A DNA stretch of 64,000 nt from assembly GCA_003022945.1 (NCBI GenBank), contig PXRZ01000009.1:6710-70709 (forward strand). The letters run 5' to 3'. The position numbers and the translations under genes were made by a program. Every line of letters starts with the position of its first letter. Within the stretch, counting starts at the first letter, position 1. Shown here piece by piece: positions 7,855 through 60,001 of this stretch. This DNA is from Halobacteriales archaeon QS_8_69_73 (lineage in GTDB: Archaea; Halobacteriota; Halobacteria; Halobacteriales; Haloarculaceae). Under the pieces are notes generated by a model. That model was not told the DNA's origin. It saw only the letters and a program-made list of their open reading frames with translations, and did not search any database.

Positions 7855-8865
7855 ATGACCAGCCCTATCCGCCTTCTCATCGTCGACGACGATCCCTCCC
7901 TTGCGGATCTGATGTCGGACCAGCTGTCGGAGCTGCGGGAGGAGTTCTCCGTCCGGGTCGAGACCGACCCCCACGACGCGCTGGACGCCGTCGAGGCGGG
8001 CGACATCGACTGCGTGCTCAGCGACTACCATATGCCCGAGATGGACGGTCTCGAACTGCTCCGGTACGTCCGGGAGATGGAGCCCAGCATCCCCTTCATT
8101 CTCTTCACCTCCCGCGGCAGCGAGGAGGTCGCCAGCGAGGCGGTCTCGGAGGGGGTCACCGACTACTTCCGGAAGCGCCGCGGCACCGACCAGTGGGAGG
8201 TGCTGGCCAACCGCATCGAGAACTCCGCGGCCCGCTACCGGGCCGAGCGGGCGGTCCAACGCCGGGAGGCGGCGCTGAACGACCTCGCCAGGACGGTCAT
8301 CGACAGCGTCTCCACGCCCGTCGAGGACCTCCTCGAGCTCGGCCGAGAGACGCTTGCCCTCGAGTACGGCGCTCTGCTCCAGGGGGAAGGCGACGACGCG
8401 GAGGTGCTGGTCGAGGCCGCCGACAGCGGGGTCCCGTCGCCGGCCGACGGCGGCTCGCCGTTCGACGAGTTCGAGGCCCTGACCGTCGACGCCGGCAGCG
8501 TCGTCACCGGGACGGCCGACGAGGGGTCGACCGGGTTCAGCATCTACGTCGGCAGCACCATCTACGTCGGCGACCGCCGGTACGGAACGCTGTGCTTCTG
8601 CGACCGCGAGGCCGACGGCGACTTCTCCGAGTGGGAGCGGACCTTCGTCGAGCTGCTCGGCGACTGGCTGGCACACGAGCTGACCAGCGAATGGGCCCGG
8701 GACCGCGACGAGGCGGTCCGGGCGGCCCGCCGACGCATCGACGAGGTCCGGTCGGCCATCGACGACGACGACACCGACACCGCCCGCGAGGAGCTCGACG
8801 CCATCGCGAAGCTGCTCGACCAGGAGCCGCCCTCCGCGACGGCCGTCTCCGTCGAGCTCTCTTAG
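7855..8865 (+). CDS. Response regulator with REC and GAF-like domains
   Basis: Residues 1-125 form a receiver domain with the acidic pocket DDD (11-13) and the phospho-acceptor Asp57 in VLSDYHMPEMDG. The conserved lysine region reads FRKRRG. Residues 150-275 resemble the GAF module of haloarchaeal bacterioopsin-activator-like proteins (YGTLCFCDREADGDFSEWERTFVELL). The last 60 residues are a charged helix, with no HTH domain. Output is therefore probably by protein contact or ligand sensing. No histidine kinase is adjacent. The gene overlaps the next one tail to tail by 4 nt. Confidence 0.85.
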   Translation: MTSPIRLLIVDDDPSLADLMSDQLSELREEFSVRVETDPHDALDAVEAGDIDCVLSDYHMPEMDGLELLRYVREMEPSIPFILFTSRGSEEVASEAVSEGVTDYFRKRRGTDQWEVLANRIENSAARYRAERAVQRREAALNDLARTVIDSVSTPVEDLLELGRETLALEYGALLQGEGDDAEVLVEAADSGVPSPADGGSPFDEFEALTVDAGSVVTGTADEGSTGFSIYVGSTIYVGDRRYGTLCFCDREADGDFSEWERTFVELLGDWLAHELTSEWARDRDEAVRAARRRIDEVRSAIDDDDTDTAREELDAIAKLLDQEPPSATAVSVELS

Positions 8866-9668
8866 AGCAGGTCGACGAACTGATCGGGGTGTTCGGCGTG
8901 CGGCAACAGGTCGGCGTCCTCGAAGACGACCAACTCGGCGTCGAGCCGTTCGGCGAGGTCGCGGCCGGTTTCCACCGGCGGCAGCTCGGCCGCCCGGCCC
9001 CAGACGATCGTCGTCGGGGCCGTCACGTCCAGCGCCGCCCCCAGGTCGACGTCGACGTCGAGGAAGCCGGCGACGAACGACGCCGGCGCGAACCGGGCGC
9101 CCTCCTGGTGGGCCGTCCGCCAGTCGTAGTCGACCCACTCCTCCGGGATGGCACCCGCGAAGCCGTGGTCCGCGAGGAAGTACCTGATCGACGGCTTCGA
9201 GGTCAGCAGATTGTACAGCGCCTCCCCGGCGACCGGCGACCGCAGCAGCGACCGGAGCCACGTCCGTCGGCCCGGCACGGTCGATGCCGTCGGGCAGACG
9301 AAGACGTACTCCGCGGCGTCGACGTCGGCCGCGGCGACGTAGGCGGCCGACAGCGACGAGGCGACGACGGTCGGCTCCGTGACCAGCTCCCCGGCGAAGT
9401 CGTCGACGAAGGCCTCGAGCGCGTCGACGACGTACCGGAACTCGTGGCTCGAGCCGGCGGCGTTGATCCCGTGCAACAGCAGTAGGTCGGGGTCGTCGGG
9501 GTCGCCGGCCTCGGTGTAGACGACGTCGAAGCCCCGCCAACGGTACGTCTCGACCGGTCGGCCGAGCGGCGGCTCGAGGTCGTCGGGATCGGCGCGCAGC
9601 GCCGCGTTGCCGACCGCGACCGCGCCGAGTGTCGCCGCGGTCCCGCCCAGCAGTCGCTTCGCGTTCAT
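8862..9668 (-). CDS. Alpha/beta hydrolase with an apparent internal deletion
   Basis: The preferred start is the ATG at 9668 (268 aa), giving MNAKRLLGGTAATLGAVAVG, an N-terminal hydrophobic segment. The fold is recognised by LLLLHGINAAGSSHEF (oxyanion region), the nucleophile elbow VASSLSAAY and a C-terminal histidine in LPHAEHPDQF. Between HEFRYVVDAL and AFVDDFAGEL the usual strand, the DLPGFGxS loop and a helix, about 25-30 residues, are absent, yet the frame stays open. The junction is near 9420. The protein may be inactive, or sequence may be missing from the assembly. The substrate is unknown. Confidence 0.7.
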   Translation of the reverse strand: MNAKRLLGGTAATLGAVAVGNAALRADPDDLEPPLGRPVETYRWRGFDVVYTEAGDPDDPDLLLLHGINAAGSSHEFRYVVDALEAFVDDFAGELVTEPTVVASSLSAAYVAAADVDAAEYVFVCPTASTVPGRRTWLRSLLRSPVAGEALYNLLTSKPSIRYFLADHGFAGAIPEEWVDYDWRTAHQEGARFAPASFVAGFLDVDVDLGAALDVTAPTTIVWGRAAELPPVETGRDLAERLDAELVVFEDADLLPHAEHPDQFVDLL

Positions 9669-9716
9669 ACTCGGGCCGACGACCGTCATGCGCTTAGAAC
9701 TACCGTTTGCCTGTCG

Positions 9717-10772
9717 TCAGTCCTCGCGGGCGTCGCGGCGCTCGCGGACGGCCTCGGCGACCGGCGCGAGGACCTCGTCGGCGACGGAGTAGGGATCGGT
9801 CTCCCGTGCGACGACGGCGTCGACGTACTCCTCGAGGCCGCCGCGGGCCTCCAGTTCCTCCTCGACGAGGGCGGCGCTGTCGGCCCGCAGTAGCGTCCGT
9901 ATCTCGTCGGCGTACCGCCGGCGGGCCCGGGCGCCCCGCTCGCCGGTCGCCTCCAGCCACTCGGCGTGGTCGGCCAGCACCGCCAGCAGTTCGTCGACGC
10001 CCTCGCCGGTCTTGGCGACCGTCTCGATGATGGGGGGCTGTCGCTCCTCGTCGTCGTCCTCGTTCTTGTCGTCGTCGATGCCGGACGGCCCGGCGCCGGC
10101 GCCGTGGTGGCCGGCCATCGGCGAGGCGTCTCGCATGTGGACCATCTCCCGCAGCTCCTTGACCGTCCGGTCGGCGCCGTCGAGGTCGGCCTTGTTGACC
10201 ACGAAGGCGTCGGCGATCTCGAGGATGCCGGCCTTCAGCATCTGGACGTCGTCGCCGGAACCGGGCGGCACCAGCACCGCGACGGTGTCGGCCATCCGCA
10301 CGATGTCGACCTCGTTTTGGCCGGCGCCGACCGTCTCGACGATGATGCGGTCCTTGCCGAAGGCATCCAGCGCCTTCACTGCGTCCGTCGTCGACGTCGA
10401 CAGCCCGCCCAGCGAGCCGCGGGCCGACATCGACCGGAAGAAGACGTCCATGTCGCCGACGTTGGACGCCATCCGGATGCGGTCGCCCAGCACCGCCCCG
10501 CCGGTGTACGGCGAGGAGGGGTCGATGGCGATAACGCCGACCGTCTCGCCGCGCTCGCGGTAGGTGGCGGCCATCTTGTCGACCAGCGTCGACTTGCCCG
10601 CCCCCGGCGAGCCGGTGATACCGACCACCTGCGCCCGGCCGGTGTGGTCGTGCAGCCGCGAAACCAGCTCCCGGTAGCCCGGCGACCGGTTTTCGATCTT
10701 CGTGATGACCCGCGCCAGCGCCCGGTGCTCGCCGGCCAGTAGCTCGTCGATGAGCGACTCGTCGCCGCTCAT
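9717..10772 (-). CDS. meaB: MeaB/ArgK-type G-protein chaperone of methylmalonyl-CoA mutase
   Basis: This 351-aa GTPase loads and protects adenosylcobalamin in methylmalonyl-CoA mutase. The P-loop GITGSPGAGKST is at 51-62; further family motifs are AIDPSSPYTGGAVLGDRIRM, the ETVGAGQ switch region and VVNKAD for guanine specificity. An acidic His/Asp-rich insert (about residues 218-240) interrupts the C-terminal half and is probably a halophilic loop. The start at 10772 overlaps the stop of the B12-binding subunit gene by 4 nt (ATGA), showing a coupled operon. Confidence 0.93.
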   Translation of the reverse strand: MSGDESLIDELLAGEHRALARVITKIENRSPGYRELVSRLHDHTGRAQVVGITGSPGAGKSTLVDKMAATYRERGETVGVIAIDPSSPYTGGAVLGDRIRMASNVGDMDVFFRSMSARGSLGGLSTSTTDAVKALDAFGKDRIIVETVGAGQNEVDIVRMADTVAVLVPPGSGDDVQMLKAGILEIADAFVVNKADLDGADRTVKELREMVHMRDASPMAGHHGAGAGPSGIDDDKNEDDDEERQPPIIETVAKTGEGVDELLAVLADHAEWLEATGERGARARRRYADEIRTLLRADSAALVEEELEARGGLEEYVDAVVARETDPYSVADEVLAPVAEAVRERRDARED

Positions 10773-48069: not shown

Positions 48070-48831
48070 ATGCCCGAGCTAGCCGTCGCCGTCGTCGACG
48101 CCGAGACGCCGGGCAACGTCGGCAGCATCGCCCGCGCGATGAAGAACTTCGGGCTGTCGGAGCTGTACCTCGTGGACCCACCGGAGCTGGACCCCGACGG
48201 CGAGGCTTACGGCTTCGCCGGCCAAGCCCGCGAGGACGTCCTGCCGGACGCCCGCGAGGTCGGATTCGACGTTCTCGTCGAGAACTTCTACACCGTCGGG
48301 ACGACCGCCGTCACCAACGAAAACGCCACCAAGCACGTCAGGTACCCGTTCGTCCGGCCGGCGGAGCTGGCCGACGAACTCGGCGGGCTCGACGCCGACG
48401 TCTGCGTCGTCTTCGGCCGCGAGCGGGTCGGCCTCACCAACGACGAGCTGGCCCGGCTCGACCGCGTCTGTTCGGTGCCGGCCGACGAGGACTACCCCGT
48501 AATGAACCTCGCACAGGCCGCGACGGTCGTGCTGTACGAGCTCCGGGCGCTGACCGTCGAGGAGGTCCAACACCCCGACGACCCCCACGAGCGGGCCGAC
48601 GAACGCGAAATCGAGGGGCTGTACGAGACGTTCGACGACTACCTGCGAGCGGTCGACCACCCCGAGGAGAAGATCGACAAGACCGAGCGGCTGTTCCGCC
48701 GACTCGTCGCCCGCGGGCAGCCGACCGGCCGGGAGACCCGGACGCTCCGGGGTGTGCTACGGCGCGGCGCGATGATCGCGACGGGCGAGGTCCAGCGACC
48801 GGACGGCCGGAACGACAGCGACGACCGCTGA
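48070..48831 (+). CDS. trmJ: SPOUT-class RNA 2'-O-methyltransferase (TrmJ-type)
   Basis: The 253-aa protein has all three SpoU motifs: VVDAETPGNVGSIARAMKNFG (motif 1), VVFGRERVGLTNDELARLD (motif 2) and PADEDYPVMNLAQAATVVLYEL (motif 3), which form the trefoil knot that binds SAM. Archaeal TrmJ methylates the ribose of C32 in tRNA. The C-terminal extension is charged and helical. It lies in an operon with the gene at 47553. Confidence 0.88.
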   Translation: MPELAVAVVDAETPGNVGSIARAMKNFGLSELYLVDPPELDPDGEAYGFAGQAREDVLPDAREVGFDVLVENFYTVGTTAVTNENATKHVRYPFVRPAELADELGGLDADVCVVFGRERVGLTNDELARLDRVCSVPADEDYPVMNLAQAATVVLYELRALTVEEVQHPDDPHERADEREIEGLYETFDDYLRAVDHPEEKIDKTERLFRRLVARGQPTGRETRTLRGVLRRGAMIATGEVQRPDGRNDSDDR

Positions 48832-48911
48832 TGCTGACTTCTGCACTCCATTCTGAGCGGTATCCAAGCTTTTGACGGGGTATTTTGTTCAGTGGCTTCC
48901 TGTCGATCAGT

Positions 48912-50114
48912 TCAGGACGCCCGACCGGAGACACCAGCAACAATTATGTACACAGTGATGAATCCGATCGTCACGACGGCGATCCCACCGGAGAGGTCCG
49001 CCAGCAGTTCCAGGCTGGTAGAACGGCCGACCGCTTCGGCTCCGAGTAGGAACCCGAGTCCCCCGACGGCACCGCCGCCGACGAGGGTCGCTCTCGGACG
49101 GACCGGCTCAGGGGCGATGTACCGAGCGGCTCCAAGGATAGCAATCGATGGGACGATCGCCGCGGCAGCGACGACGGTCGGGGAAAACGGCAGGAACATT
49201 AGCGCGCCAACTGCTTGGATGACGAGGACGCCTGCGAGCATCATGAACACCTGTGTCGGTGCCTTTCCGTCAGTTCTTGCTGCTGTGTCAGGTGACCGTT
49301 CGGCTGTCGTCGCAGATGGCCATTCGCTGGCCGGAGGACTGTCTAATGTCGAAGTACCGGGATTCTGTTCCGATTCGATCTTCCGACTGTCGTATAGCAG
49401 CGTCCCACAGTGGCTCGATACAGAAGCCGAAGTCCAGAGCGCTAGCATGAAAAAAAGTGTACGCGAAGAGCCACCGACGGCCGGGAACGTTCCTGTTACG
49501 TACCTGAGCGGGACAAATACCGGCAGAGAGGCGGCGCTGAGGACGAGCGGCCCGGCAAAAATGTACCGGAGGTGCTGGGAAAGTGGGCGCAGGGAAATGG
49601 TGTCACCTATCTTCCGGACCAGTTGGATGAACCCGACGGCGAGCAGCAATCCGAGTATGGCAGATTCGGGCGAGGCATCGATTTGGGTCGCACTAAAGAC
49701 GGTCACCGGTGCTGTGAGAGCAATGATTGCGAACTGTCGCCGAGTCCGGTCCGGTAAAGGGGAGACGGCCCATTGTTCAGCTGTTTCGGGATTCTCAACC
49801 ATATTATGAACAAAATCCTGGCAGTGCTCGTGCATATGCGGCCCGTAATAACTTTCAGTAGGATTTCGGAGATAAATGAAGTAAAGCCACGCCAGTCCAG
49901 TCACACCAGCAACAGGAACAATCATCAACATGACGATTATGTCTACAGTGCGCTCAATCTCGATAGATATCCAAGATCCAACTGCAGCAACAGCAAGTGT
50001 CGCGAGGACTCCCCCAGCAAAAATAGCGATACCGAGTAAGATCGTGTGAGTCGCGATAGCGTAGATGAATCCGTAAAATGCAGCGAACCTTTTTGACATT
50101 CTTTGTGTATTCAA
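48912..50114 (-). CDS. Multi-pass membrane protein, paralog 1 (most divergent)
   Basis: This 400-aa protein has about nine helices. The C-terminal 110 residues (MMLAGVLVIQAVGALMFLPF to VYIIVAGVSG) are nearly the same as in the three paralogs at 50282, 51755 and 53118, while the N-terminus (MNTQRMSKRFAAFYGF) is different and lacks MDSDMPED. Shared internal blocks are AEQWAVSPLPDRTRR, RPLSQHLRYIFAGP and HCGTLLYDSRKI. A disordered Ser/Thr/Glu-rich loop lies near residues 255-285. No known family was recognised. Confidence 0.75.
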   Translation of the reverse strand: MNTQRMSKRFAAFYGFIYAIATHTILLGIAIFAGGVLATLAVAAVGSWISIEIERTVDIIVMLMIVPVAGVTGLAWLYFIYLRNPTESYYGPHMHEHCQDFVHNMVENPETAEQWAVSPLPDRTRRQFAIIALTAPVTVFSATQIDASPESAILGLLLAVGFIQLVRKIGDTISLRPLSQHLRYIFAGPLVLSAASLPVFVPLRYVTGTFPAVGGSSRTLFFMLALWTSASVSSHCGTLLYDSRKIESEQNPGTSTLDSPPASEWPSATTAERSPDTAARTDGKAPTQVFMMLAGVLVIQAVGALMFLPFSPTVVAAAAIVPSIAILGAARYIAPEPVRPRATLVGGGAVGGLGFLLGAEAVGRSTSLELLADLSGGIAVVTIGFITVYIIVAGVSGRAS

Positions 50115-50281
50115 TGATGAAATATTATCTTATTCGCCCTGTGATTTAGCGATAACGATAGCCTACTCAGATCGCCCGACAGCGCGCCTGTGATTTGGGT
50201 TATCTCTAAACTAACTTCTAGCGATTAGTTCTGGCAGGACAGTATCAATTACGGGGTTATTTCAAAATTCTACGGTGCTCA

Positions 50282-51535
50282 TTATGTTTCTTGATTTCTT
50301 TGCCCGGTGCGTTCGGAAGACGGTCCGTTAGAGACGCCAGCAACGACTATGTACATAGCGATAAATCCGATCGTCATGACAGCGATCCCACCGGAGAGAT
50401 CCGCCAGCAATTCCAAATTGGTGGAACGACCGACCGCTTCGGCTCCGAGTAGGAATCCGAGTCCCCCGACGGCGCCACCACCCACCAATATGGCCCTCGG
50501 ACGAACCGCCTCGGGAGCGATGTACCGGGCGGCTCCAAAGATAGCAACCGACTGGGCAATCGCTGCGGCGGCGACGACAGCAGGCGAAAACGGCAGGAAT
50601 ATCAGCGCGCCAACTGCCTGGATGACAAGGACGCCTGCGAGCGTCACGAATACTTGGGTCGGGACCGTCCCACCGGAACCTGTCGCCGCGCCAGACGACT
50701 TCTCATCTGTCGTCGTAGATGGTCTCTCACTGGGCTGCGTGCTGTCTGTCGTTGAGGCGTCGGGCTGCTGTCCCGCGTCGATTTTTCGGCTGTCGTACAG
50801 CAGCGTCGCGCAGTGACCCGACACACAGGCCGCGATATATAATGCTATGAATGTGACGAGTCCGCTCCAGGCGAGGATATTGATGGCCGGGATCGCTCCC
50901 TGCGTGAGAACTAACATCACGAGAAATATTGGTATGATGGTGAGGCCGAGAACGAACGGCCCAGCGAAGATGTATCGGATGTGCTGTGAAAACGGACGAA
51001 GAGAGATCGTGTCGGTCGCTGTCCGAATCAGTTGTACGAAGCCGACAGCAAGCAGCAATCCGAAGAACGCAGCCAGGAATGTCGTGTCGAGCTGAGTGAT
51101 GGCGAAGACGGTCACCGGTGCCCCAACCGTGACGACTGCGAGCCAGCGTCGGGTTCGATCGGGAAGCGGCGCGTCAGCCCACTGCTCGACCGCCGCAGGG
51201 TCGTCGAACGTATTGTAGACGAACCCCCGATACATGGAGTACGTCTGTGAAATCGGAAGGAAATCATCGGTCGGATCTTCGAGGTAGGTGAAGTAGAGCC
51301 ATGTCAGTCCCGTTACGCTGGGAATAAGCGAGAGTACGAACAGGTGTGGCGGGCCGATGGTGGATTCAATAGACACCCGTGCCTCAAGAACATAATACAG
51401 AGCCATTACGATTCCCGCACCGAACGAATAAGAATTGAGGAGCATGAATGTGTAACCTAAAAGCATTATGACGACGCCGCCAATTGCCCTGAGTTTGTGC
51501 ACGTCGCGGACGTCTTCGGGCATGTCCGAGTCCAT
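50282..51535 (-). CDS. Multi-pass membrane protein, paralog 2
   Basis: 417 aa, starting MDSDMPEDVRDVHKLRAIGG with a soluble start and then about nine helices. Blocks shared with the other copies: VEQWADAPLPDRTRRWLAVV, LDTTFLAAFFGLLLAVGFVQ, ISLRPFSQHIRYIFAGP, SGHCATLLYDSRKI, then a Ser/Thr/Gln-rich loop and the conserved tail. The gene is preceded by an 84-aa frame that repeats the end of the 517-aa protein gene. Unknown function. Confidence 0.75.
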   Translation of the reverse strand: MDSDMPEDVRDVHKLRAIGGVVIMLLGYTFMLLNSYSFGAGIVMALYYVLEARVSIESTIGPPHLFVLSLIPSVTGLTWLYFTYLEDPTDDFLPISQTYSMYRGFVYNTFDDPAAVEQWADAPLPDRTRRWLAVVTVGAPVTVFAITQLDTTFLAAFFGLLLAVGFVQLIRTATDTISLRPFSQHIRYIFAGPFVLGLTIIPIFLVMLVLTQGAIPAINILAWSGLVTFIALYIAACVSGHCATLLYDSRKIDAGQQPDASTTDSTQPSERPSTTTDEKSSGAATGSGGTVPTQVFVTLAGVLVIQAVGALIFLPFSPAVVAAAAIAQSVAIFGAARYIAPEAVRPRAILVGGGAVGGLGFLLGAEAVGRSTNLELLADLSGGIAVMTIGFIAMYIVVAGVSNGPSSERTGQRNQET

Positions 51536-51546
51536 GGTGCTGTTTT

Positions 51547-51801
51547 TTAGACGTCCTGCGACTCGGCTGTTACAATCACCCAGTCAGGAGACCCAATAGT
51601 GTGCTCGTTACTGGAACTGTCGTCGAACTTGACTTCTGTCGGTCCTGTCCGGAAGTTGGCTGGCAGTTCTTCGGCGTCCATGTATTCAGGTGGAGAGGTC
51701 CGATACGACACATCATAAATCCCCTTAGCAAAACGAATCTCACGTCCGGCCGCATCAAGTAACATCCGTTGACTCGGATCCCCCCCCGGAGACACCAGCA
51801 A
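51547..51801 (-). pseudogene. Duplicated tail of the 517-aa protein gene (fragment A)
   Basis: The 84-aa frame ends AEELPANFRTGPTEVKFDD and then TIGSPDWVIVTAESQDV, matching the C-terminus of the protein encoded at 54348-55901. Its first residues, MLVSPGGDPSQR, come from the end of paralog 3 read in another frame. It lies 11 nt before paralog 2. It marks the upstream limit of a duplicated block (tail of gene B plus gene C). Confidence 0.75.
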
Positions 51802-52885
51802 CAGCTACGTACGTAGCGATGAACCCGATCGTCATGACAGCGACCCCATCGGAGAGGCCTGACAGTAATTTCAAGCTAGTGAAACGACCGACCGTTTCGG
51901 CTCCGAGCAGGAACCCGATCCCTCCGGCGGCGCCGCCACCGACGAGGGTCGCTCTCGGACGGACCGCCTCGGGAGCGATGTACCGAGCGGCCCCCAGGAT
52001 GAGAAATGACTGCAAAATTACCGCGGCGGCGACGATAGCCGGCGAAAACGGCAGGAATATTAGCGCGCCAACCGCCTGGACGACGAGGACGCCTGCGAGC
52101 GTTACGAACACCTGAGTTGGGGCCGTCTCGTCGGCGTCCGTCGCCGCGTCAGACGACCCCTCACGCGTCGTCGTGGGCGGTTTCTCGCTGAGCTGCTGTC
52201 TCGTGCCGATTTTCCGGCTATCGTACAGCAACGTCGCGCAGTGGCCCGATACACAGGCCGCGATGTATAATGCCGCGAGCGTGACGAGTCCACTCCAGGA
52301 GACGATGTCGATGGTCGGAACCGCCCCTCGCGTGAGAATTACGATCGGGAGAAACATCGGGATGGCGACGACACCGAGAATGAACGGCCCGGCGAAAATG
52401 TATCGGATGTGCTGTGAAAGCGGACGGAAAGAGATTGTATCGGTCGCCATCCGGACCAACTGAACGAAGCCAACAGCGAGCAGCAGTCCGAAGAACGCGG
52501 CTACGGACGAGGTGTCGAGTTGGGTAACGCCAAAGACAGTCACCGGTGCCGCGAGGGCGACGACCGCGAACCCCCGCCGAGTTCGGTCGGAGACTGGCGC
52601 GTCGGCCCATTGCTCGACCGCCGCAGGGTCGTCGAACGCACTGTAGACGACCTCCTGGCAGCGTATGTACATCCACTCCCAGTTAGAGGTTGGGTCCTTG
52701 AGGTAGGCGAAGTAGAGCCATGTCAACCCCGTCGCGGAGGAGGTGAGCGTTGCTGTGAAGATGAGTAACCCAACAGTCAGAGAGAAGACAAGCATGGATG
52801 CTTGAACGAAGATTGACATAAAAAGCCATATGATCGCTTGGACTTCGTGTACGTCGTGGACGCCTTCTGGCATGTCTGAGTCCAT
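51755..52885 (-). CDS. Multi-pass membrane protein, paralog 3
   Basis: 376 aa, starting MDSDMPEGVHDVHEVQAIIW. It is shorter near the N-terminus and lacks part of the outer loop, but keeps VEQWADAPVSDRTRRGFAVV, ISFRPLSQHIRYIFAGP, SGHCATLLYDSRKI and the conserved C-terminal helices. The Ser/Thr-rich loop is shortened. It overlaps fragment A in another frame (51755-51801). Confidence 0.75.
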   Translation of the reverse strand: MDSDMPEGVHDVHEVQAIIWLFMSIFVQASMLVFSLTVGLLIFTATLTSSATGLTWLYFAYLKDPTSNWEWMYIRCQEVVYSAFDDPAAVEQWADAPVSDRTRRGFAVVALAAPVTVFGVTQLDTSSVAAFFGLLLAVGFVQLVRMATDTISFRPLSQHIRYIFAGPFILGVVAIPMFLPIVILTRGAVPTIDIVSWSGLVTLAALYIAACVSGHCATLLYDSRKIGTRQQLSEKPPTTTREGSSDAATDADETAPTQVFVTLAGVLVVQAVGALIFLPFSPAIVAAAVILQSFLILGAARYIAPEAVRPRATLVGGGAAGGIGFLLGAETVGRFTSLKLLSGLSDGVAVMTIGFIATYVAVAGVSGGGSESTDVT

Positions 52886-52930
52886 GGCGCTGTTTTAGTT
52901 GTTCGTGATTTGGCCGTTACAACTACCCGA

Positions 52931-53149
52931 TCAGGGGGCCCCGATGGTATGTGCGTGGCCGGAACTATCGTTGAACTCGACCTCCATTAGTCCCGTCTGG
53001 AGATTGGCTGGCAGCTCTTCGGCGTCCGTGTCTTCAGGTGGAGAGGTCCGATACGACGCATAATAAATCCCCTTAGCAAAACGAATCTCACGTCCGGCCG
53101 CATTAAGCATCACTCGCTTACTCGGATACCACCCCGGAGACACCAGCAA
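52931..53149 (-). pseudogene. Duplicated tail of the 517-aa protein gene (fragment B)
   Basis: This 72-aa frame reads DAEELPANLQTGLMEVEFND and then SSGHAHTIGAP before an early stop; the final DWVIV...SQD part is lost. It begins inside the end of paralog 4 in another frame. Compared with fragment A it has more changes, so it looks older or less constrained. Confidence 0.7.
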
Positions 53150-54338
53150 CAGTTACGTACGTAGCGATGAATCCGATCGTCACGACGGCGACCCCACCGG
53201 AGAGGTTCGATAGCAGTTCTAAACTGGTGGAACGGTCGACCACTTCGGCTCCGAGCAGAAACCCGAGCCCCCCGACAGCGCCGCCGCCGACGAGGGTCGC
53301 CCTTGGACGAACCGCCCCAGGAGCGATATATCGGACGGCTCCAAAGATAGCGATCGACTGAACGATCGCCGCGGCGGCGACGATAACCGATGAAAACGGC
53401 AGGAATATCAGCGCGCCGACTGCCTGGACGACGAGGACGCCTGCGAGTGTCACGAATACCTGGGTCGGGACCGTCTCGCCGGAATCTGTCGCCGCATTGG
53501 ATGACCTCTCACCCGTCACCGTGGACGGTCCCTCACTGGGCTCCGTGCCGTCTATCGTTGAAGTGCCGGACTGCTGTTCCGTCTCAATCTTTCGGCTGTC
53601 GTACAGTAACGTCGCACAGTGACCCGACACGCAGGCTGCGACATATAGTGCTGTGAATATGACGGGGCCATTCCAAGAAAAGAGATTGCCAACTAACAGG
53701 ATTGGCCTCCGAATAAGAACGACGATCAGAATTATTACTGGGATGCCAACAAGACTAAGAATGAACGGCCCGGCGAAAATGTACCGCATGTGTTGTGAAA
53801 GCGGACGGAGAGAGGTCGTGTCGGTCACGGTCCGGACCGACTGGACAAAGCCGACGGCGAGCAGTAATCCGAGGGACGCAGTAATAAATGTGGTATCGAG
53901 CTCGGTGACGGCGAAGACGGTCACCGGTGCCGCGAGGGCGATGACCGCGAGCCATCGTCGAGTGCGGTTGGGAAGCGGCGTATCGGCCCACTGCTGGGCC
54001 GCCTCGGGGTCGTCGACTGTATTGTAGACGAACTCCCGGCAGCTCGCGTGTGTAGGGGCCTTTATGAAATTACGGGTCGGGTACTTGAGGTAAGCAAAAT
54101 AAAGCCACGCTAGCCCAGTCGCGCTGGGGACGAGCGCGAGCGCAAGTGCGAGTATCGGGTCGGGGGTGGATTCAATTGTCAGTCCGTCAAGAACGGAGAA
54201 CGGAGCCGCTATGATTGCCAGCCCGAGTACAAAAAAATCAGCGAGCATAAACGCATGAACGAGGACAGCTGTGAAGACGCCTCCAGCCGCCCTGACCTTG
54301 TGTACATCGCGGATGTCTTCTGGCATATCCGAACCCAT
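53118..54338 (-). CDS. Multi-pass membrane protein, paralog 4
   Basis: 406 aa, starting MGSDMPEDIRDVHKVRAAGG, the copy directly downstream of the intact 517-aa gene (9 nt apart). Helices and conserved blocks as in the others: AQQWADTPLPNRTRRWLAVI, TSLRPLSQHMRYIFAGP, SGHCATLLYDSRKI, and a C-terminal TLAGVLVVQAVGALIFLPF. As it keeps the likely original neighbour, I treat this as the parental position. Confidence 0.75.
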   Translation of the reverse strand: MGSDMPEDIRDVHKVRAAGGVFTAVLVHAFMLADFFVLGLAIIAAPFSVLDGLTIESTPDPILALALALVPSATGLAWLYFAYLKYPTRNFIKAPTHASCREFVYNTVDDPEAAQQWADTPLPNRTRRWLAVIALAAPVTVFAVTELDTTFITASLGLLLAVGFVQSVRTVTDTTSLRPLSQHMRYIFAGPFILSLVGIPVIILIVVLIRRPILLVGNLFSWNGPVIFTALYVAACVSGHCATLLYDSRKIETEQQSGTSTIDGTEPSEGPSTVTGERSSNAATDSGETVPTQVFVTLAGVLVVQAVGALIFLPFSSVIVAAAAIVQSIAIFGAVRYIAPGAVRPRATLVGGGAVGGLGFLLGAEVVDRSTSLELLSNLSGGVAVVTIGFIATYVTVAGVSGVVSE

Positions 54339-54347
54339 AGTGTCATT

Positions 54348-55901
54348 TTAATTATCTTGTGACTCAGTTGTCACAACTATCCAATCGGGCTGACCGATGG
54401 TATGCGTACGATCGGAATTGTCATTAAATTCGACTTCTGTCGGTCCCGTCCGGAAGTTGGCCGGCAGTTCTTCGGCATCCAAGTTTTCAGACGGAGCAAT
54501 CCGGTATTGGCGTTTGACAATGTGAGTAGAATCGCTAAATTCAATATTCTCGAAACGAATTTTCCCATCGTTAGCGACTTTACCATCGCTGTCCTTTTCA
54601 ACCACTCTCAATCGAGAATCAAAGGAATCAATCAGCGATATTGTGCCTTCTTCATATAATTCTGTCACGTAAATTGAAATTAAGATGGTGTCTTGATTGC
54701 CCGTAATAACATGATCGGTTTGAACCCGGGTTCCTTCAGCCTGGGATGACGAAGGTTCACAGACCGTACTCGTTGTTGTACTTTCACGCGGCTGACCATT
54801 CTCCCCACTTCCGCTCAATCCGGCTATTTGTCCTTCAGATAAATTCCGATCTGAGAGGATAAAGTGATTTCTAATTGTCGCATCGGTTTCAACAGGGACG
54901 TTATTGGTTTTAGTAATAACGGCATACTCGCGTTTAGCCTGTGCTAATGATTTCTTTGCAGCCTCAAACAGCGAATTTACCTCTTGAGCTCTATACTTTT
55001 CTTTCGTATCACTATTTTCAGAGTCCTCTTTGGCGGTTTTACGAGCTCTGGTTGTCGCTTCAATAGCTGCCTCTAACTCAACTATTATCGTTTCCTTTTG
55101 TTCAGAGGGAATTGATTTAGATTCATCAATAGTATTTTCTAATGTCGCAATATTATCAATTGCGAATGAAGCGTATGATTTCTTTGATCGAATGTCAATA
55201 CGGGCTTGACCACCACGTCCGACATCAAGTGTTGGGGAATTTACACTGACTTCGATCAGCTGCTCCTCTGCGATTGGAGAAGCAATCTCACGCTGAACAG
55301 TAACCACTTCACCCGAGTCTATCGGTGCAATATCGATTTCTGAGCACGCAGTCTCTCCACCAATATTAATATTCGCTGTCGCAGTATTTAGCTGCTTATC
55401 GCTCGGGTTAGTGACAGTGAATTCAATGTCAAATCTTTTTCCAAATGGTATAGTAGATTCACGGCAATTAACGCTTATAATGGTAGGTCGGGGTGATAAA
55501 TCGGTAGTATTAATAATATCTTTGACGTCACTGCTTGATTTATTAAGCGCTCTTTCGTCATTTTTCAATTTTTCACCAATTGATTTGATAGCGTCGGCAT
55601 CAAATTCTGCAGGATCAAAAATATATGATGAAGCAGTAGATATAAAAGCAAAGCGTCGAGTTTCGGCCGTCTGAAGAGTTATAAATGCATCCTTAATCCT
55701 CTTATTTTTATTATTTGTCAAATTGATTTCGCGGTCTCTCTTAATTTCTTTTGCCTGCTGAACTGGACTGGCAACTGACGGCGCGTAGCGATTATACTCT
55801 GTATCAAGCTCAAAAATCGCTTCGCGGGTAATCTGTCTATTTTCTTTAATCGCAGCGTCAATCACAGCGTCTATTTTCTCGAGTATCGTTTTAATGCTCA
55901 T
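54348..55901 (-). CDS. 517-aa coiled-coil/beta protein, AT-rich island gene B
   Basis: No signal peptide or membrane helix is visible. Residues 1-140 are helical (VIDAAIKENRQITREAIFEL); 145-240 form a CARDB-like beta unit (IPFGKRFDIEFTVTNPSDKQ); 245-330 is another coiled coil (ELEAAIEATTRARKTAKEDS). A Ser-rich linker near 370 leads to a beta domain (GTISLIDSFDSRLRVVE to the end) like those of archaeal surface proteins. The sequence is much richer in Asn, Lys and Ile than its neighbours, and AT-rich. The ATG overlaps the stop of gene A by 1 nt, so they are coupled. Confidence 0.75.
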   Translation of the reverse strand: MSIKTILEKIDAVIDAAIKENRQITREAIFELDTEYNRYAPSVASPVQQAKEIKRDREINLTNNKNKRIKDAFITLQTAETRRFAFISTASSYIFDPAEFDADAIKSIGEKLKNDERALNKSSSDVKDIINTTDLSPRPTIISVNCRESTIPFGKRFDIEFTVTNPSDKQLNTATANINIGGETACSEIDIAPIDSGEVVTVQREIASPIAEEQLIEVSVNSPTLDVGRGGQARIDIRSKKSYASFAIDNIATLENTIDESKSIPSEQKETIIVELEAAIEATTRARKTAKEDSENSDTKEKYRAQEVNSLFEAAKKSLAQAKREYAVITKTNNVPVETDATIRNHFILSDRNLSEGQIAGLSGSGENGQPRESTTTSTVCEPSSSQAEGTRVQTDHVITGNQDTILISIYVTELYEEGTISLIDSFDSRLRVVEKDSDGKVANDGKIRFENIEFSDSTHIVKRQYRIAPSENLDAEELPANFRTGPTEVEFNDNSDRTHTIGQPDWIVVTTESQDN

Positions 55902-57844
55902 TATATACCACCATCCAAAACAGAATCAACTCCTGTTTCGTGTATATCGATTATTTCTCGTTGCGCTTCGAATGCTGTTCCGATTTTTGCGAGATCAGTC
56001 ACAAAATCAACAACTGCAATATATGCAATAGTTCCAGCACGGGCAGCACCACCAAGTGTTTTAGCATATCTGAGAGAAATCCCAACTAATTCCTCGACAT
56101 AATCTGTGAGTGCAGCGAAAATATTCAGTCCATCATTTTCAACAAGCGCAGTATATTCATCTTCGATATCACCACGGAACTGATCGGTAGTATTTCGTGC
56201 CCCGCCGAGCGTTCCGTCAAGTTCTGTCTCTTCTGATATCTTGTCTATTTTGGAAGCAAAATTATTAAAGATAGCTAAGATTTCCGCAAACGAAATTGCA
56301 TTAATGAAGTTCTCAAAAGGTTCGAGTATAGTTGCAGTAACTCGGTCAAGTGCACCACGAATTTCATCAGCAGTCGGAGCATCCTCTAATACGAGATCAT
56401 AAATAATATCGACTCCTTCCGCAATATCTCGAACCCTCCCAGCGAGAGGAGTTGCAATCGGAAAGCCATCAAACAGCCGATCAACAACAAGATCAATGGA
56501 CCCGAGTCTTTGGGCGCTCACACCGGCGATTTTTCCACCACGAAGAGCCATCTGGGCGAACCGACCAATTACTAACAGGGTAATCAGTATCGAGACAATA
56601 CCTTTCAGAAGTTCAAAGTTTGCACCACTCGCCAATTCGGCGGCTGAAGAGTTTTGTTGAACTCCGACAAGTGTTCGGTTCTGCCTCGGAGTGTCAGCGT
56701 TATCTGAAGAGAGGTTAGCGAGCGTCTGCTCTGCGAGGTCTCTCTCACACCGGATACGCTCATATATCTGTTTCGCGGTTCGAGAATCTAATTCGCCATT
56801 TTCAACTTGGGACTGAATATCCTCAATAAACTCATCAACAGGCGATTCAAAGAGTAATTTATTTGCATCTTCTGTTCGGACAGTAAACTTCTCAAGCAAT
56901 GGATCTTCAAATCCTGTGAAGAAGTCGTCAACTGCCTCTATCTGATCCTTTATTTGCTCTTGGATATCTGAAATGTCCTGCCCGCCCTCATCGAGAATCA
57001 TTTTATTTCCGTTCTGGTTTTGGAACGAACTATTGAATGTCAGTGGAAGGCTTGAGGTAGTAGTAGCACTACCAAATGCATCATTAGGGGCGACAGCATC
57101 AGTTAATAAATCGAAACTGTTGAGAATATAGAATGGCTCCGAGTCAACAAGACTACCAGTTCCAAGTGCGCCGGTCTTATCGACAGTGAATCCTGGTGTA
57201 GTATTAGTTCGTGCGATCCGATTCCCGTCAAAATATAATTCTAAGCGTTGGGCATCGTTATCTACAACTGCAAATATTTCGTGGATTTTTTCATCAAAAA
57301 TCTGATCCTGTATTTTGCCAACAAGTTGCTCGACAAGTCGTCCGTCACGGACGAAATTGAAACGGACGCGAGCATTAAAATTACTAGCCGCCGAAATGCA
57401 TTGCACATTGATTTCATTTAAGATATTATTGTCATCAAAATAAGCCACAACATTAAGAAAGCGGTCGATGATAGTCGTGGCGGTCGCAGGATCGATAGCA
57501 GAGGAGGACCGGAATTTAGTCCGGAATGTGTATTTTGATCCGGTCGAGACAAGCGCATCAGACGTTGCCCCAAATCCATCAGTGATGTCTTTGTCACCAC
57601 TGGGAGGAATCAATCGAAGGTTGGACTCTGCTGTCCATTCACCGGATGAAACTCGTACGGCACCGTTCCTCCGTGTCCCACTGGTTTGTAAGGTACTGAT
57701 AATCGGTTCAACGTCATCTTCATCGTAAATAGACGTCCTATCCGGGCCGTCTTTACTTTCAGCTACCGCGTGTCCGGTAGACCCGAGGATTCCCACCCCA
57801 ACTGTACTGTATAATACCTTCCGCCTACGAATCGGGTATTCCAC
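55901..57844 (-). CDS. 647-aa predicted Tat-exported protein, AT-rich island gene A
   Basis: The N-terminus RRRKVLYSTVGVGILGSTGH has the twin-Arg pattern with a weak hydrophobic stretch. Residues about 60-265 look like a LamG/concanavalin-type beta sandwich (VVAYFDDNNILNEINVQC, RLELYFDGNRIAR). The rest is helical, with a hydrophobic segment near 420-440 (LLKGIVSILITLLVIGRFAQ) and another near 600 (AGTIAYIAVVDFVTDLA). Base composition is AT-rich, so it was probably acquired. I know no homologous family. It could bind a surface glycan and insert a helical domain into a membrane; this is inference. Confidence 0.7.
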   Translation of the reverse strand: MEYPIRRRKVLYSTVGVGILGSTGHAVAESKDGPDRTSIYDEDDVEPIISTLQTSGTRRNGAVRVSSGEWTAESNLRLIPPSGDKDITDGFGATSDALVSTGSKYTFRTKFRSSSAIDPATATTIIDRFLNVVAYFDDNNILNEINVQCISAASNFNARVRFNFVRDGRLVEQLVGKIQDQIFDEKIHEIFAVVDNDAQRLELYFDGNRIARTNTTPGFTVDKTGALGTGSLVDSEPFYILNSFDLLTDAVAPNDAFGSATTTSSLPLTFNSSFQNQNGNKMILDEGGQDISDIQEQIKDQIEAVDDFFTGFEDPLLEKFTVRTEDANKLLFESPVDEFIEDIQSQVENGELDSRTAKQIYERIRCERDLAEQTLANLSSDNADTPRQNRTLVGVQQNSSAAELASGANFELLKGIVSILITLLVIGRFAQMALRGGKIAGVSAQRLGSIDLVVDRLFDGFPIATPLAGRVRDIAEGVDIIYDLVLEDAPTADEIRGALDRVTATILEPFENFINAISFAEILAIFNNFASKIDKISEETELDGTLGGARNTTDQFRGDIEDEYTALVENDGLNIFAALTDYVEELVGISLRYAKTLGGAARAGTIAYIAVVDFVTDLAKIGTAFEAQREIIDIHETGVDSVLDGGI

Positions 57845-58131
57845 GGGATTACGTCTTTACTAACACATAATAAAGCCTCGGCAAACTGAATCTACAATTA
57901 TACTTTTGATTAAAATCCTAGATTGAGCTTATTTTTATTCAAATTCTATCACAAGCATATTTTGTCGGGAGACTGAATGAGCAAACATGCTTCCACATCT
58001 GTTTCAAGATGTTTCACCGAGCAGAATAATTAATAGGCCCTATCATACGAATAATTATGAATAAAGCGCGAGATGACACTTAGTTAACTTATTTATCAAC
58101 AAAATCATCGGTTCAAGCAGATGCAGTCCGT
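57845..58131. other. AT-rich spacer, promoter region of the island
   Basis: This spacer is much richer in A and T than the flanks and carries TTTATTC, TTAATAGG and TTATTTATC patches. It lies just before gene A (start 57844) and after the gatE stop, so it probably holds the operon promoter (CTTTATTATGTG near 57865 on the minus strand is a candidate). No small gene is seen. Confidence 0.45.
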
Positions 58132-60001
58132 TTAAGCGCGCTTCCCGATAGCCTCCCGCAGCAGCTCGGAGACGACCTCGCCGTCGGCCTTCCCGCGGAG
58201 CTCGCCCATGCACTCGCCCATCAGCCCCGAGAAGGCGCCCATCCCCTCGCGTTCGACCTGGTCGGCGTTGCGCTCGACGACGCCCTCGACGACCTTGCGG
58301 ACGGCCTCGCGGTCGGCGCCGCCGACGCCGGCGGCCTCCATCGCCGCCTCGGCGTCCAGCGAGGGGTCGTCTGCCAGCGCCGACAGCACCGGCCCGATCC
58401 CCTCGTTCGGCAGGTCGCCGTCGGCGACGAGCTCCAGGACGGACAGCAGGTGGTCGTCGGCGAGCCGCCCGACGGGGACGTCGTCCCGGCGGAGCTCGGT
58501 CAGCGTCCCTTCGAGGGTGTCGGCGGCGGTCGTCGGGTCGACGCCCCGCGCGACGGCGGCCTCGAAGGTCGGCATGTGCTCGCCGTAGGCGACCTGTTCG
58601 GCCAGCCCGGCGTCGAGGCCGTGTTCGGCCCGGTACCGGTCGATCTTCTCGGTCAGGAGCTCCGGCGGCTCGATTGCCGAGGGGTCCGGCTCGACGGGCG
58701 GGACGTCCGTCTCGGGGTACATCCGGGCGGCGCCGGGCAGCGGCCGCAGGTACCGCGAGGTGCCGTCCTCGTCGGCACCGCGGGTCTCCTCGGGAACGCC
58801 CGCGATTGCGGTCTCGGCGCGGTCGACGACGGCGTCGATCGCGCGCTCGGCGACGTCGGCGTCGGCGGCCACCAAAGCGACGGCGTCTCCTGCTCGCGGC
58901 TCATCGCCGTCTTCTCGCGGGCTCTGCCCGCTCGAACGGTCCGCGGAGCTTTGCTCCGCGCTACTCGCACCGTTCGAGGCGCTCTGCGCCTCGCGCGCGC
59001 CGACCGCCGTCCGGAGCGCCGCGACCTCCTCGCTCGTGACGCCGTAGGCCGGCAGCTCGTCGGTGTGGAAGATCCCGCCGGCGCCCTGGCGCGTGGCGTG
59101 GTCCGACAGCTCCGTGCCGAGCCGGCGGTCGGGCTGTATCTCCGAAGATCTCGGTGACGTCGACGGGGTCGCCGACGGCGGCGTCGCGGGCTCGCAGCTC
59201 CTCGGCTATCTCCAGGAGCTCGACCTGACGCTTCACCTCGTTTTCGACGATGTCGTCGATGTCGTCGAGGCTCTGGACGCCCTTCAGCTCGACGCGGGCG
59301 CCGGCCTCGATGGAGACGTTGACGTCCTGGCGGATGGTGCCGAGCCCGCGCTTCACCCGGCCGGTCGACCGCAGCAGCATGCCGATGCGCTCGGCGGCCT
59401 GCTTGGCCTGTGCGGGCGTTCGGATGTCGGGTTCCGTTCCGATCTCGACCAGCGGCACCCCGAGGCGGTCGAGGCCGTAAGTGACGCCGTCCGCCCGGTC
59501 GTCGATCCGGGCGGCGGATTCTTCCTCCAGCAGGAGGTCGGCGATACCGACGGGGCCGGCGTCGGTCTCGATCTCGCCGTCGGTCGCCAAGAGTGCCGAC
59601 CGCTGGAAGCCGGAGGTGTTGGAGCCGTCGACGACGATCTTCCGCATCACCTGTGCCCGGTCGACGATCGTACAGTCCAGCAGGGCGGCGATCTCCAGGG
59701 CGACTTCGAGGGCCGCCCCGTCGAGGCGGTGGGGCGGCTCGTCGTCCTCCTCGACGAGGCAGGTGGAATCGAAGGCGAGGTACTCGAACTCGCGGTCGAC
59801 GCGGGACTCCTCGAGGGCGGCCTCGTCGAGCTCGCCGAGCTCGGACTTCGTCGGGTGGAGATACCGGGTGAACGACCGGACGGAGTCGGCGGGATCGCGG
59901 CGCTCCGTCGGGCAGTTACAGAACAGCTTCGTCGCCGTATCGAGCTGCTGGTGGATCTCCAGCCCGGCGACGAGCCCCAGTTCCTCGTAGTCGTGGCTCA
60001 T
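58132..60001 (-). pseudogene. gatE: Glu-tRNA(Gln) amidotransferase subunit E, frame broken, with hairpin insert
   Basis: GatE, with GatD, converts Glu-tRNA(Gln) to Gln-tRNA(Gln) in archaea. From ATG 60001 the frame is clear to VDVTEIFG; then it breaks near 59140 and resumes in another frame at EIQPDRRLGTELSDHATRQG. Relatives have about 30 more residues here. In the second part an in-frame insert (about 30 Ser/Gly/Gln-rich residues, 58890-58993) made of three mini-hairpins separates AVGARE from ALVAADADVAERA. The C-terminal Yqey-like domain is intact. This is normally an essential single-copy gene. Confidence 0.85.
58917..58993. repeat. Three mini-hairpins inside gatE
   Basis: GCGGGC/loop TCT (58917-58931), CGCGGAGC/loop TTT (58942-58960), CGAGGCGC/loop TCT (58975-58993). 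The first two, including the spacer GCCCGCTCG-A-GGTCCGCGGA, match the block at 14538-14581, with compensating changes in the second stem. Confidence 0.85.

What the first reader, a model, noticed from the sequence alone, without database searches (positions are those of the whole stretch)
54348..57844. AT-rich two-gene core of a possible new system
Genes A (647 aa, Tat-like signal, LamG-like part, hydrophobic helical C-terminal half) and B (517 aa, coiled coils, CARDB-like and surface-type beta domains) overlap by 1 nt, are far more AT-rich than the rest of the window and resemble no family I know. They are directly followed by a multi-pass membrane gene that was later amplified. An exported effector with dedicated partner and membrane immunity or anchor proteins is a reasonable model; a surface-adhesion or secretion complex is another. 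Nothing in the sequence proves either.
Basis: partly seen in the sequence, partly recalled or inferred. Interest (0 to 1): 0.8.

Follow-up and report, generated by a model that had tools for sequence, protein, structure and literature searches.

The report
Tat-exported two-gene module of haloarchaea
Two neighbouring genes in this salt-loving archaeon belong to an apparently undescribed two-protein module, found in about one in eleven sampled haloarchaeal species, in which one exported protein carries exchangeable binding heads and its partner lacks an export signal of its own; it looks like a cell-surface recognition or antagonism device, but its function is untested.

Summary
A (647 aa, Tat signal) and B (517 aa) overlap by 1 nt and have 43% GC against about 69% around them. 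They are followed by four divergent copies of a multi-pass membrane gene, C. No curated family matches them. Profile searches nevertheless show that A-B is a real module. Full-length B homologues occur in about 35 of 392 haloarchaeal genomes. In 34 of 38 such loci a Tat-signal gene of A type lies directly upstream (gap -44 to +6 nt). Every strong A hit among 243 genomes sits beside a B. A and B have co-diverged (distance-matrix r = 0.89).

A's exported head is swapped between loci (PKD, PQQ propeller, VWA, LamG, ThuA, FG-GAP) on a shared helical C-terminal domain. B has coiled coils and CARDB but no signal peptide, so it probably leaves with A through Tat. C is not part of the conserved core. 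It occurs only in this genus, twice without A-B at the same gatE/trmJ junction. In the window the copies C2 and C3 carry scars of B's 3' end, as immunity arrays do.

Surface recognition complex versus antagonistic effector is undecided. Structure models failed (pLDDT 30 and 36).

The parts
55901..57844 (-). gene A, 647 aa: Tat signal, exported N-terminal head (LamG-like by eye only), shared helical C-terminal domain (from about residue 285)
   Evidence: ORF; Tat motif; C-terminal domain matches profiles built from the family
54348..55901 (-). gene B, 517 aa: coiled coil, CARDB-like domain, coiled coil (family core, about residues 1-345), plus a C-terminal extension not seen in the homologues (about 380-517); no signal peptide
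57868..57875 (-). TATA-like CTTTATTA about 27 nt upstream of the GTG of A, compatible with a leaderless transcript (reading by eye)
   Evidence: sequence
53118..54338 (-). C1, 406 aa, multi-pass membrane protein, starts 9 nt after the B stop
52893..53053 (-). decayed copy of the B 3' end in front of C2 (frameshift/stop)
   Evidence: family D6
51755..52885 (-). C2, 376 aa
51545..51705 (-). copy of the B 3' end in front of C3 (frame open to the stop)
   Evidence: family D6
50282..51535 (-). C3, 417 aa
48912..50114 (-). C4, 400 aa, without a B scar upstream; closest to the C of G559 (77% identity)
48832..58131 (.). whole AT-rich insert between the convergent genes trmJ (48070-48831 +) and gatE (58132-60001 -); the junction is 19-56 nt in seven congeners

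Best explanation
A-B is the conserved core of a modular, horizontally exchanged Tat-exported complex. A folds in the cytoplasm together with B, which has no export signal. A's Tat signal takes both across the membrane (hitch-hiking), and translational coupling through overlapping genes keeps the two in balance. Outside, A's exchangeable head binds a ligand on a surface, cell or polymer. The shared helical C-terminal domain of A, with B's coiled coils and CARDB domain, forms the common chassis that holds the complex at the membrane, often next to a third, locus-specific membrane or surface protein. Most likely use: recognition or adhesion at the cell surface. Shown: the pair, its co-inheritance, the Tat signals, the lack of a signal in B, the swapped heads, the mobile site. 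Inferred: the complex, co-export, ligand binding, the role of the third gene.
For: 34 of 38 full-length B homologues have an A-type Tat gene directly upstream, gap -44 to +6 nt. In 243 genomes all 15 full-length A hits lie beside a B. Distance matrices of the A C-terminal domain and B correlate at r = 0.89, 0 of 2000 permutations as high, and 0.66 among distant pairs only. Heads: PKD in 11 of 34, PQQ/BamB propeller 7, VWA 3, LamG 3, FG-GAP 2, ThuA 2, mostly typical ligand-binding or surface domains. A Tat motif was found in 30 of 34 A proteins. No B shows a typical N-terminal signal, yet 24 of 36 match CARDB and one carries a dockerin, domains typical of exported proteins. In several loci the next gene is a Sec-signal NEW3/DUF11/PKD/cadherin protein with a C-terminal membrane anchor. 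Tat hitch-hiking of signal-less partners is established in E. coli (HybOC, PaoABC; PMC4273604).
Against: No binding, complex formation or export was tested. A's C-terminal domain has no recognisable fold: no PDB hit better than E = 0.05, and the model of A has pLDDT 30. In the window A the C-terminal hydrophobic hairpin seen in homologues is weak; only the segment near residue 416 is strong. Orphan C genes under purifying selection and B-tail scars fit an immunity array better than an adhesin partner.
Confidence: 0.48

Rival explanations
1. Antagonistic effector with immunity. A-B is an exported killing complex: the variable head binds the target cell, the helical hydrophobic C-terminal domain disturbs its membrane, and C (here amplified) is a membrane immunity protein protecting producer and kin.
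For: Four non-identical polytopic C genes directly follow B, two with fragments of B's 3' end in front. Orphan C genes of two allele types (54% identical to each other) sit at the same site in relatives without A or full-length B. C-pair dN/dS about 0.3-0.5, and N-halves far more diverged than C-halves (dS 1.8-3.0 against 0.4-0.6 for C1-C3 versus C4), i.e. recombining alleles. The layout resembles the TspA-TsaI locus of S. aureus, with arrays of polytopic TsaI and a toxin pseudogene fragment (PMC9484751), and effector displacement that leaves immunity genes behind in V. cholerae (PMC5361080). Several other A-B loci have a 115-216 aa, 3-4 TM third gene, the size of pore-forming colicin immunity proteins (own knowledge). 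Many A homologues have a hydrophobic hairpin 50-90 residues from the C-end.
Against: In other loci the third gene is a signal-bearing Ig-type surface protein or absent, not an immunity-like protein. The variability lies in the N-terminal head, the reverse of polymorphic toxins. No toxin domain, no PADLOC hit. C is not found with any other A-B. Both genomes with orphan C are incomplete (88% and 72%).
Confidence: 0.33
2. A-B is a surface complex and C is an unrelated resident of the gatE/trmJ insertion site that was duplicated together with the end of B by ordinary tandem recombination.
For: C exists without A-B at this site; C4 has no B scar; other cargo sits in the same gap in congeners (L119, L127); C is absent from all other A-B loci sampled.
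Against: C1 starts 9 nt after B, like a coupled operon gene, and lies in the same AT-rich insert; three further copies are kept under purifying selection.
Confidence: 0.15
3. B is not exported: it stays in the cytoplasm as a dedicated folding chaperone or regulator of A, and only A reaches the surface.
For: No B homologue has a typical signal peptide; tight translational coupling; chaperones of Tat substrates are known (own knowledge).
Against: CARDB, NPCBM-associated and dockerin domains in B are typical of extracellular proteins.
Confidence: 0.2

Closest known systems
Tat hitch-hiker complexes (HybO-HybC, PaoABC of E. coli; PMC4273604)
   Same: one subunit with a Tat signal, co-encoded partner without any signal
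   Different: no cofactor enzyme; here the partner has CARDB and coiled coils and the signal-bearing subunit has exchangeable heads; co-export untested
VARTIG modules of Thermococcales (PMC8416519)
   Same: archaeal, membrane-associated, variable exported protein at the head of an operon, followed by Ig-domain and membrane proteins; CARDB present
   Different: the VARTIG lead protein has a hypervariable C-terminal Ig region; here the N-terminal head varies, the C-terminal domain is shared, and a dedicated partner B is constant. The VARTIG authors found no close counterpart outside Thermococcales
TspA-TsaI (S. aureus T7SS) and other effector-immunity arrays (PMC9484751, PMC5361080)
   Same: tandem non-identical polytopic membrane genes directly downstream, with a fragment of the upstream gene in the array; orphan copies
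   Different: no T7SS/T6SS, the fragment comes from B and not from a known toxin domain, no toxicity known
Polymorphic toxin systems
   Same: modular exported protein, variable domain, possible immunity genes
   Different: inverted polarity: variable N-terminus, conserved C-terminus; no known toxin domain
Halocins (e.g. HalH4) and the HFX_0892 precursor of Haloferax mediterranei (PMC6759562, PMC12893001)
   Same: haloarchaeal antagonism by secreted proteins

Membership tests
CARDB (PF07705), for B | score at or above the gathering cutoff of 22.7 bits | tested here: not met
   window B 15.1 bits; homologues L015, L016, L009 at 24.6-29.7 bits; 24 of 36 homologues match at E <= 0.01
Laminin_G_3 (PF13385), for A | significant profile match of the window A head | tested here: not met
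   no hit; hhalign E = 0.83 against L016/L015 heads; homologue L016 matches at 1.7e-7
Tat substrates | RR-x-hydrophobic signal with h-region and AxA-type cleavage site | tested here: met
   RRKVLYSTVGVGILGSTGHAVA-ES; motif found in 30 of 34 A homologues
Tat hitch-hiker complex | co-encoded partner lacks any signal peptide | tested here: met
Tat hitch-hiker complex | partner is co-exported in complex | not testable with these tools
   needs fractionation and pull-down
Polymorphic toxin system | conserved N-terminal delivery part with variable C-terminal toxin domain | tested here: not met
   heads vary, C-terminal domain shared
Polymorphic toxin system / effector-immunity array | immunity gene family next to the effector, arrays and orphans | tested here: inconclusive
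   array, scars and orphans of C in this genus; different third genes elsewhere
Effector-immunity pair | C neutralises toxicity of A-B | not testable with these tools
   bench test needed
Colicin-type pore-former | C-terminal helical bundle with a hydrophobic hairpin | tested here: inconclusive
   hairpin in many homologues, weak in the window A; structure model unusable, pLDDT 30
VARTIG | large Ig-domain protein with hypervariable C-terminal Ig region, Thermococcales only | tested here: not met
   variable part is N-terminal and of many folds; haloarchaeal; definition from PMC8416519
Known anti-phage defence systems | PADLOC model match | tested here: not met
   no family up to E = 1
Halocin H4 | sequence homology to HalH4 | not tested
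   record not held under the accession tried; tblastn of a family A C-terminal domain against the plasmid collection found only Halobaculum

The most novel reading that the evidence does not exclude
A widespread, undescribed archaeal antagonism system of inverted architecture: a Tat-exported heterodimer (A-B) with a conserved helical membrane-active C-terminal domain and exchangeable N-terminal receptor-binding heads, protected by polytopic membrane immunity proteins that build up in arrays and persist as orphans in strains that lack the weapon.
Probability: 0.28. Interest if true: 0.87.

Novelty: new variant of a known kind. Interest (0 to 1): 0.62.

Why it matters
If the pair is what it seems, haloarchaea carry a common, mobile two-protein chassis onto which very different binding heads are grafted, exported folded through Tat with a partner that has no signal of its own. 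It would be a clear natural case of Tat hitch-hiking in archaea, where Tat is heavily used, and either a new class of surface recognition complex or a heterodimeric, head-swapping haloarchaeal weapon with membrane immunity. Both can be tested in Haloferax volcanii. A and B have no curated family, so the proteins are now called only after their heads ('PKD domain-containing', 'CARDB domain-containing') and the system is invisible in annotation.

Tried and rejected
Pfam, NCBIfam, PHROGs and PADLOC scans of A, B, C: nothing above chance (the weak M50, spanin and ZorB1 hits are chance level). Viral contigs, five scans (A alone, B alone, A10, A11, A12): no relative, so a virus-borne module is not supported. 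Plasmids: only Halobaculum A relatives. PDB profile searches: none for the A C-terminal domain, only Ig-like for B. A and B are not homologous to each other. Weak C-profile hits outside the genus (G245, G235, G177) are antisense frames of other genes and were rejected. B tails in front of C2 and C3 as functional small genes: rejected for the C2 copy, which has a frameshift and stop. HFX_0892 and halocin papers were read in part for a match to A-B; no operon partner or head domain like A-B was found in the passages shown. The NCBIfam name 'PLuB system' among the PQQ hits is not discussed in the held papers. Makarova 2019 on archaeal polymorphic toxins is not held, so prior mention there cannot be excluded.

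Full report
CHECK. A (55901-57844, minus, GTG, 647 aa) and B (54348-55901, minus, 517 aa) are intact open frames. They overlap by one base in TATAATG. Their GC is 0.43 against 0.694 in the rest of the window; the C genes lie at 0.54-0.59. A starts with a good Tat signal followed by an AVA-E site. An archaeal TATA-like CTTTATTA lies about 27 nt before the GTG, compatible with a leaderless transcript (reading by eye). No library of curated families recognises A, B or C.

THE PAIR IS REAL AND WIDESPREAD. A single-sequence search with B found five very distant homologues (19-23% identity) in other haloarchaeal families, while A and C found none among 243 genomes. Reading the neighbourhoods showed that each of the five B homologues directly follows a 614-1060 aa gene with a Tat signal whose C-terminal part aligns with A. 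Profiles made from these were then used; B's was searched in 392 genomes of the order. About 35 carry full-length B homologues; the many other hits are generic CARDB domains. In the fetched loci, 34 of 38 B homologues have an A-type gene immediately upstream with a gap of -44 to +6 nt. Two more have an A with a broken or split frame, one has none, and one is a degenerate copy. Conversely all 15 full-length A hits in 243 genomes stand beside a B. The A family falls into several subfamilies that single profiles hardly bridge; B ties them together. Distances between A C-terminal domains and between B proteins correlate at r = 0.89 (no permutation of 2000 as high; 0.66 for distant pairs only), as expected of partners inherited together. 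Among 197 genomes drawn across the phylum, only haloarchaea of the same order matched. No relatives were found in viral contigs.

ANATOMY OF THE MODULE. A is a Tat-exported protein with an exchangeable head on a shared C-terminal domain of about 360 residues. Heads identified by Pfam in 34 members: PKD arrays in 11, PQQ/BamB propellers in 7, VWA in 3, LamG in 3, FG-GAP in 2, ThuA in 2. The window head has the LamG look by eye but no statistical support. The C-terminal domain is helical and often ends in a hydrophobic hairpin 50-90 residues before the C-end; the window A has instead one strong segment near residue 416. It matches no solved structure and no Pfam family. B has coiled coil, CARDB and coiled coil (24 of 36 members match CARDB, one bears a dockerin). 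None has a typical signal peptide: the highest 12-residue hydropathy in the first 50 residues is 2.0 at most, against 2.7-3.1 for the signal-bearing third genes. Extracellular-type domains without a signal, in a gene coupled to a Tat substrate, are the reason for proposing Tat hitch-hiking, known for HybOC and PaoABC. The window B has an extra C-terminal region (about 380-517) that the aligned homologues lack.

THE THIRD GENE. Where a gene follows B closely, it is often a membrane or surface protein, but of changing kind: 115-119 aa with three segments (L017, L052, L055, L056), about 200 aa with four segments (L080, L082), or a Sec-signal NEW3/DUF11/PKD/cadherin protein with a C-terminal anchor (L019, L053, L059, L060, L064, L071). 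In Halobaculum magnesiiphilum the three genes are annotated PKD, CARDB and NEW3 domain-containing protein. In the window the third gene is C, a polytopic protein in four copies 54-68% identical to each other.

HISTORY OF THE SITE. The insert lies between the convergent genes trmJ and gatE. In seven congeners the gap is 19-56 nt. Two congeners, G310 and G559, have one C gene there and nothing else, and neither A nor full-length B was found in their (incomplete) genomes. C4 is the relative of the G559 gene (77%), C1 of the G310 gene (74%). C2 and C3 are each preceded by a piece of B's 3' end (73% over 128 nt, 84% over 83 nt), C4 is not. The simplest story: a resident C4-like gene, arrival of A-B-C1 upstream, then duplications that dragged along B's tail. 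The C copies are under purifying selection (dN/dS about 0.3-0.5). Their C-terminal halves are homogenised (dS 0.4-0.6 for C1-C3 versus C4) while the N-terminal halves are near saturation (1.8-3.0). These are the traits of immunity arrays such as TsaI/EsaG in S. aureus and displaced immunity genes in V. cholerae, but they are also open to other explanations.

MECHANISM. Firm: a co-inherited, Tat-targeted pair with swapped heads and a patchy distribution. Moving between genomes is suggested by that patchiness, by the occupied and empty gatE/trmJ junctions, and by A+B being more AT-rich than their flanks in 25 of 34 loci. Inferred: A and B form a complex, cross by Tat together, and act outside. 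I prefer a surface recognition complex because the heads are mostly ligand-binding domains and several third genes are anchored surface proteins. The antagonism model is close behind because of the C array, the orphan C genes and the hydrophobic helical domain. The general absence of C-like genes in other loci and the inverted polarity speak against filing it as a polymorphic toxin system.

NOVELTY. No description of this pair was found in the papers at hand; the nearest concept is VARTIG in Thermococcales, whose authors searched other archaea and reported no close counterpart. I could not read the 2019 survey of archaeal polymorphic toxins. Two structure predictions failed, probably for lack of aligned sequences, so the fold of the key domain is the main open point.

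Noticed in passing
window 58132-60001: gatE (essential in haloarchaea, own knowledge) is split into two frames near 59138; the relative G310 has one intact 687-aa frame. Probably an assembly error, possibly real.
   Followed up: partly
L119 2250-2809, L127 189-1507: Other cargo in the gatE/trmJ gap of congeners: a CBS-domain gene and a threonine-synthase-like gene, so the junction is an insertion hot spot.
   Followed up: partly
L019 and L053, third gene (8587-10086 and 8897-10216): Sec signal, NEW3, PKD, membrane segment, long disordered part and a terminal zinc ribbon, possibly in the cytoplasm: a transmembrane protein that could pass a signal inward.
   Followed up: no
L057 and L062 (genome G268): Three B homologues in one genome, each directly after an A gene; one matched stretch contains a stop codon.
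   Followed up: no
L077, L078, L079, L081: An A subfamily with a proline-rich stretch of repeated PDE.. / LPD.. motifs between two helical parts of the C-terminal domain.
   Followed up: no
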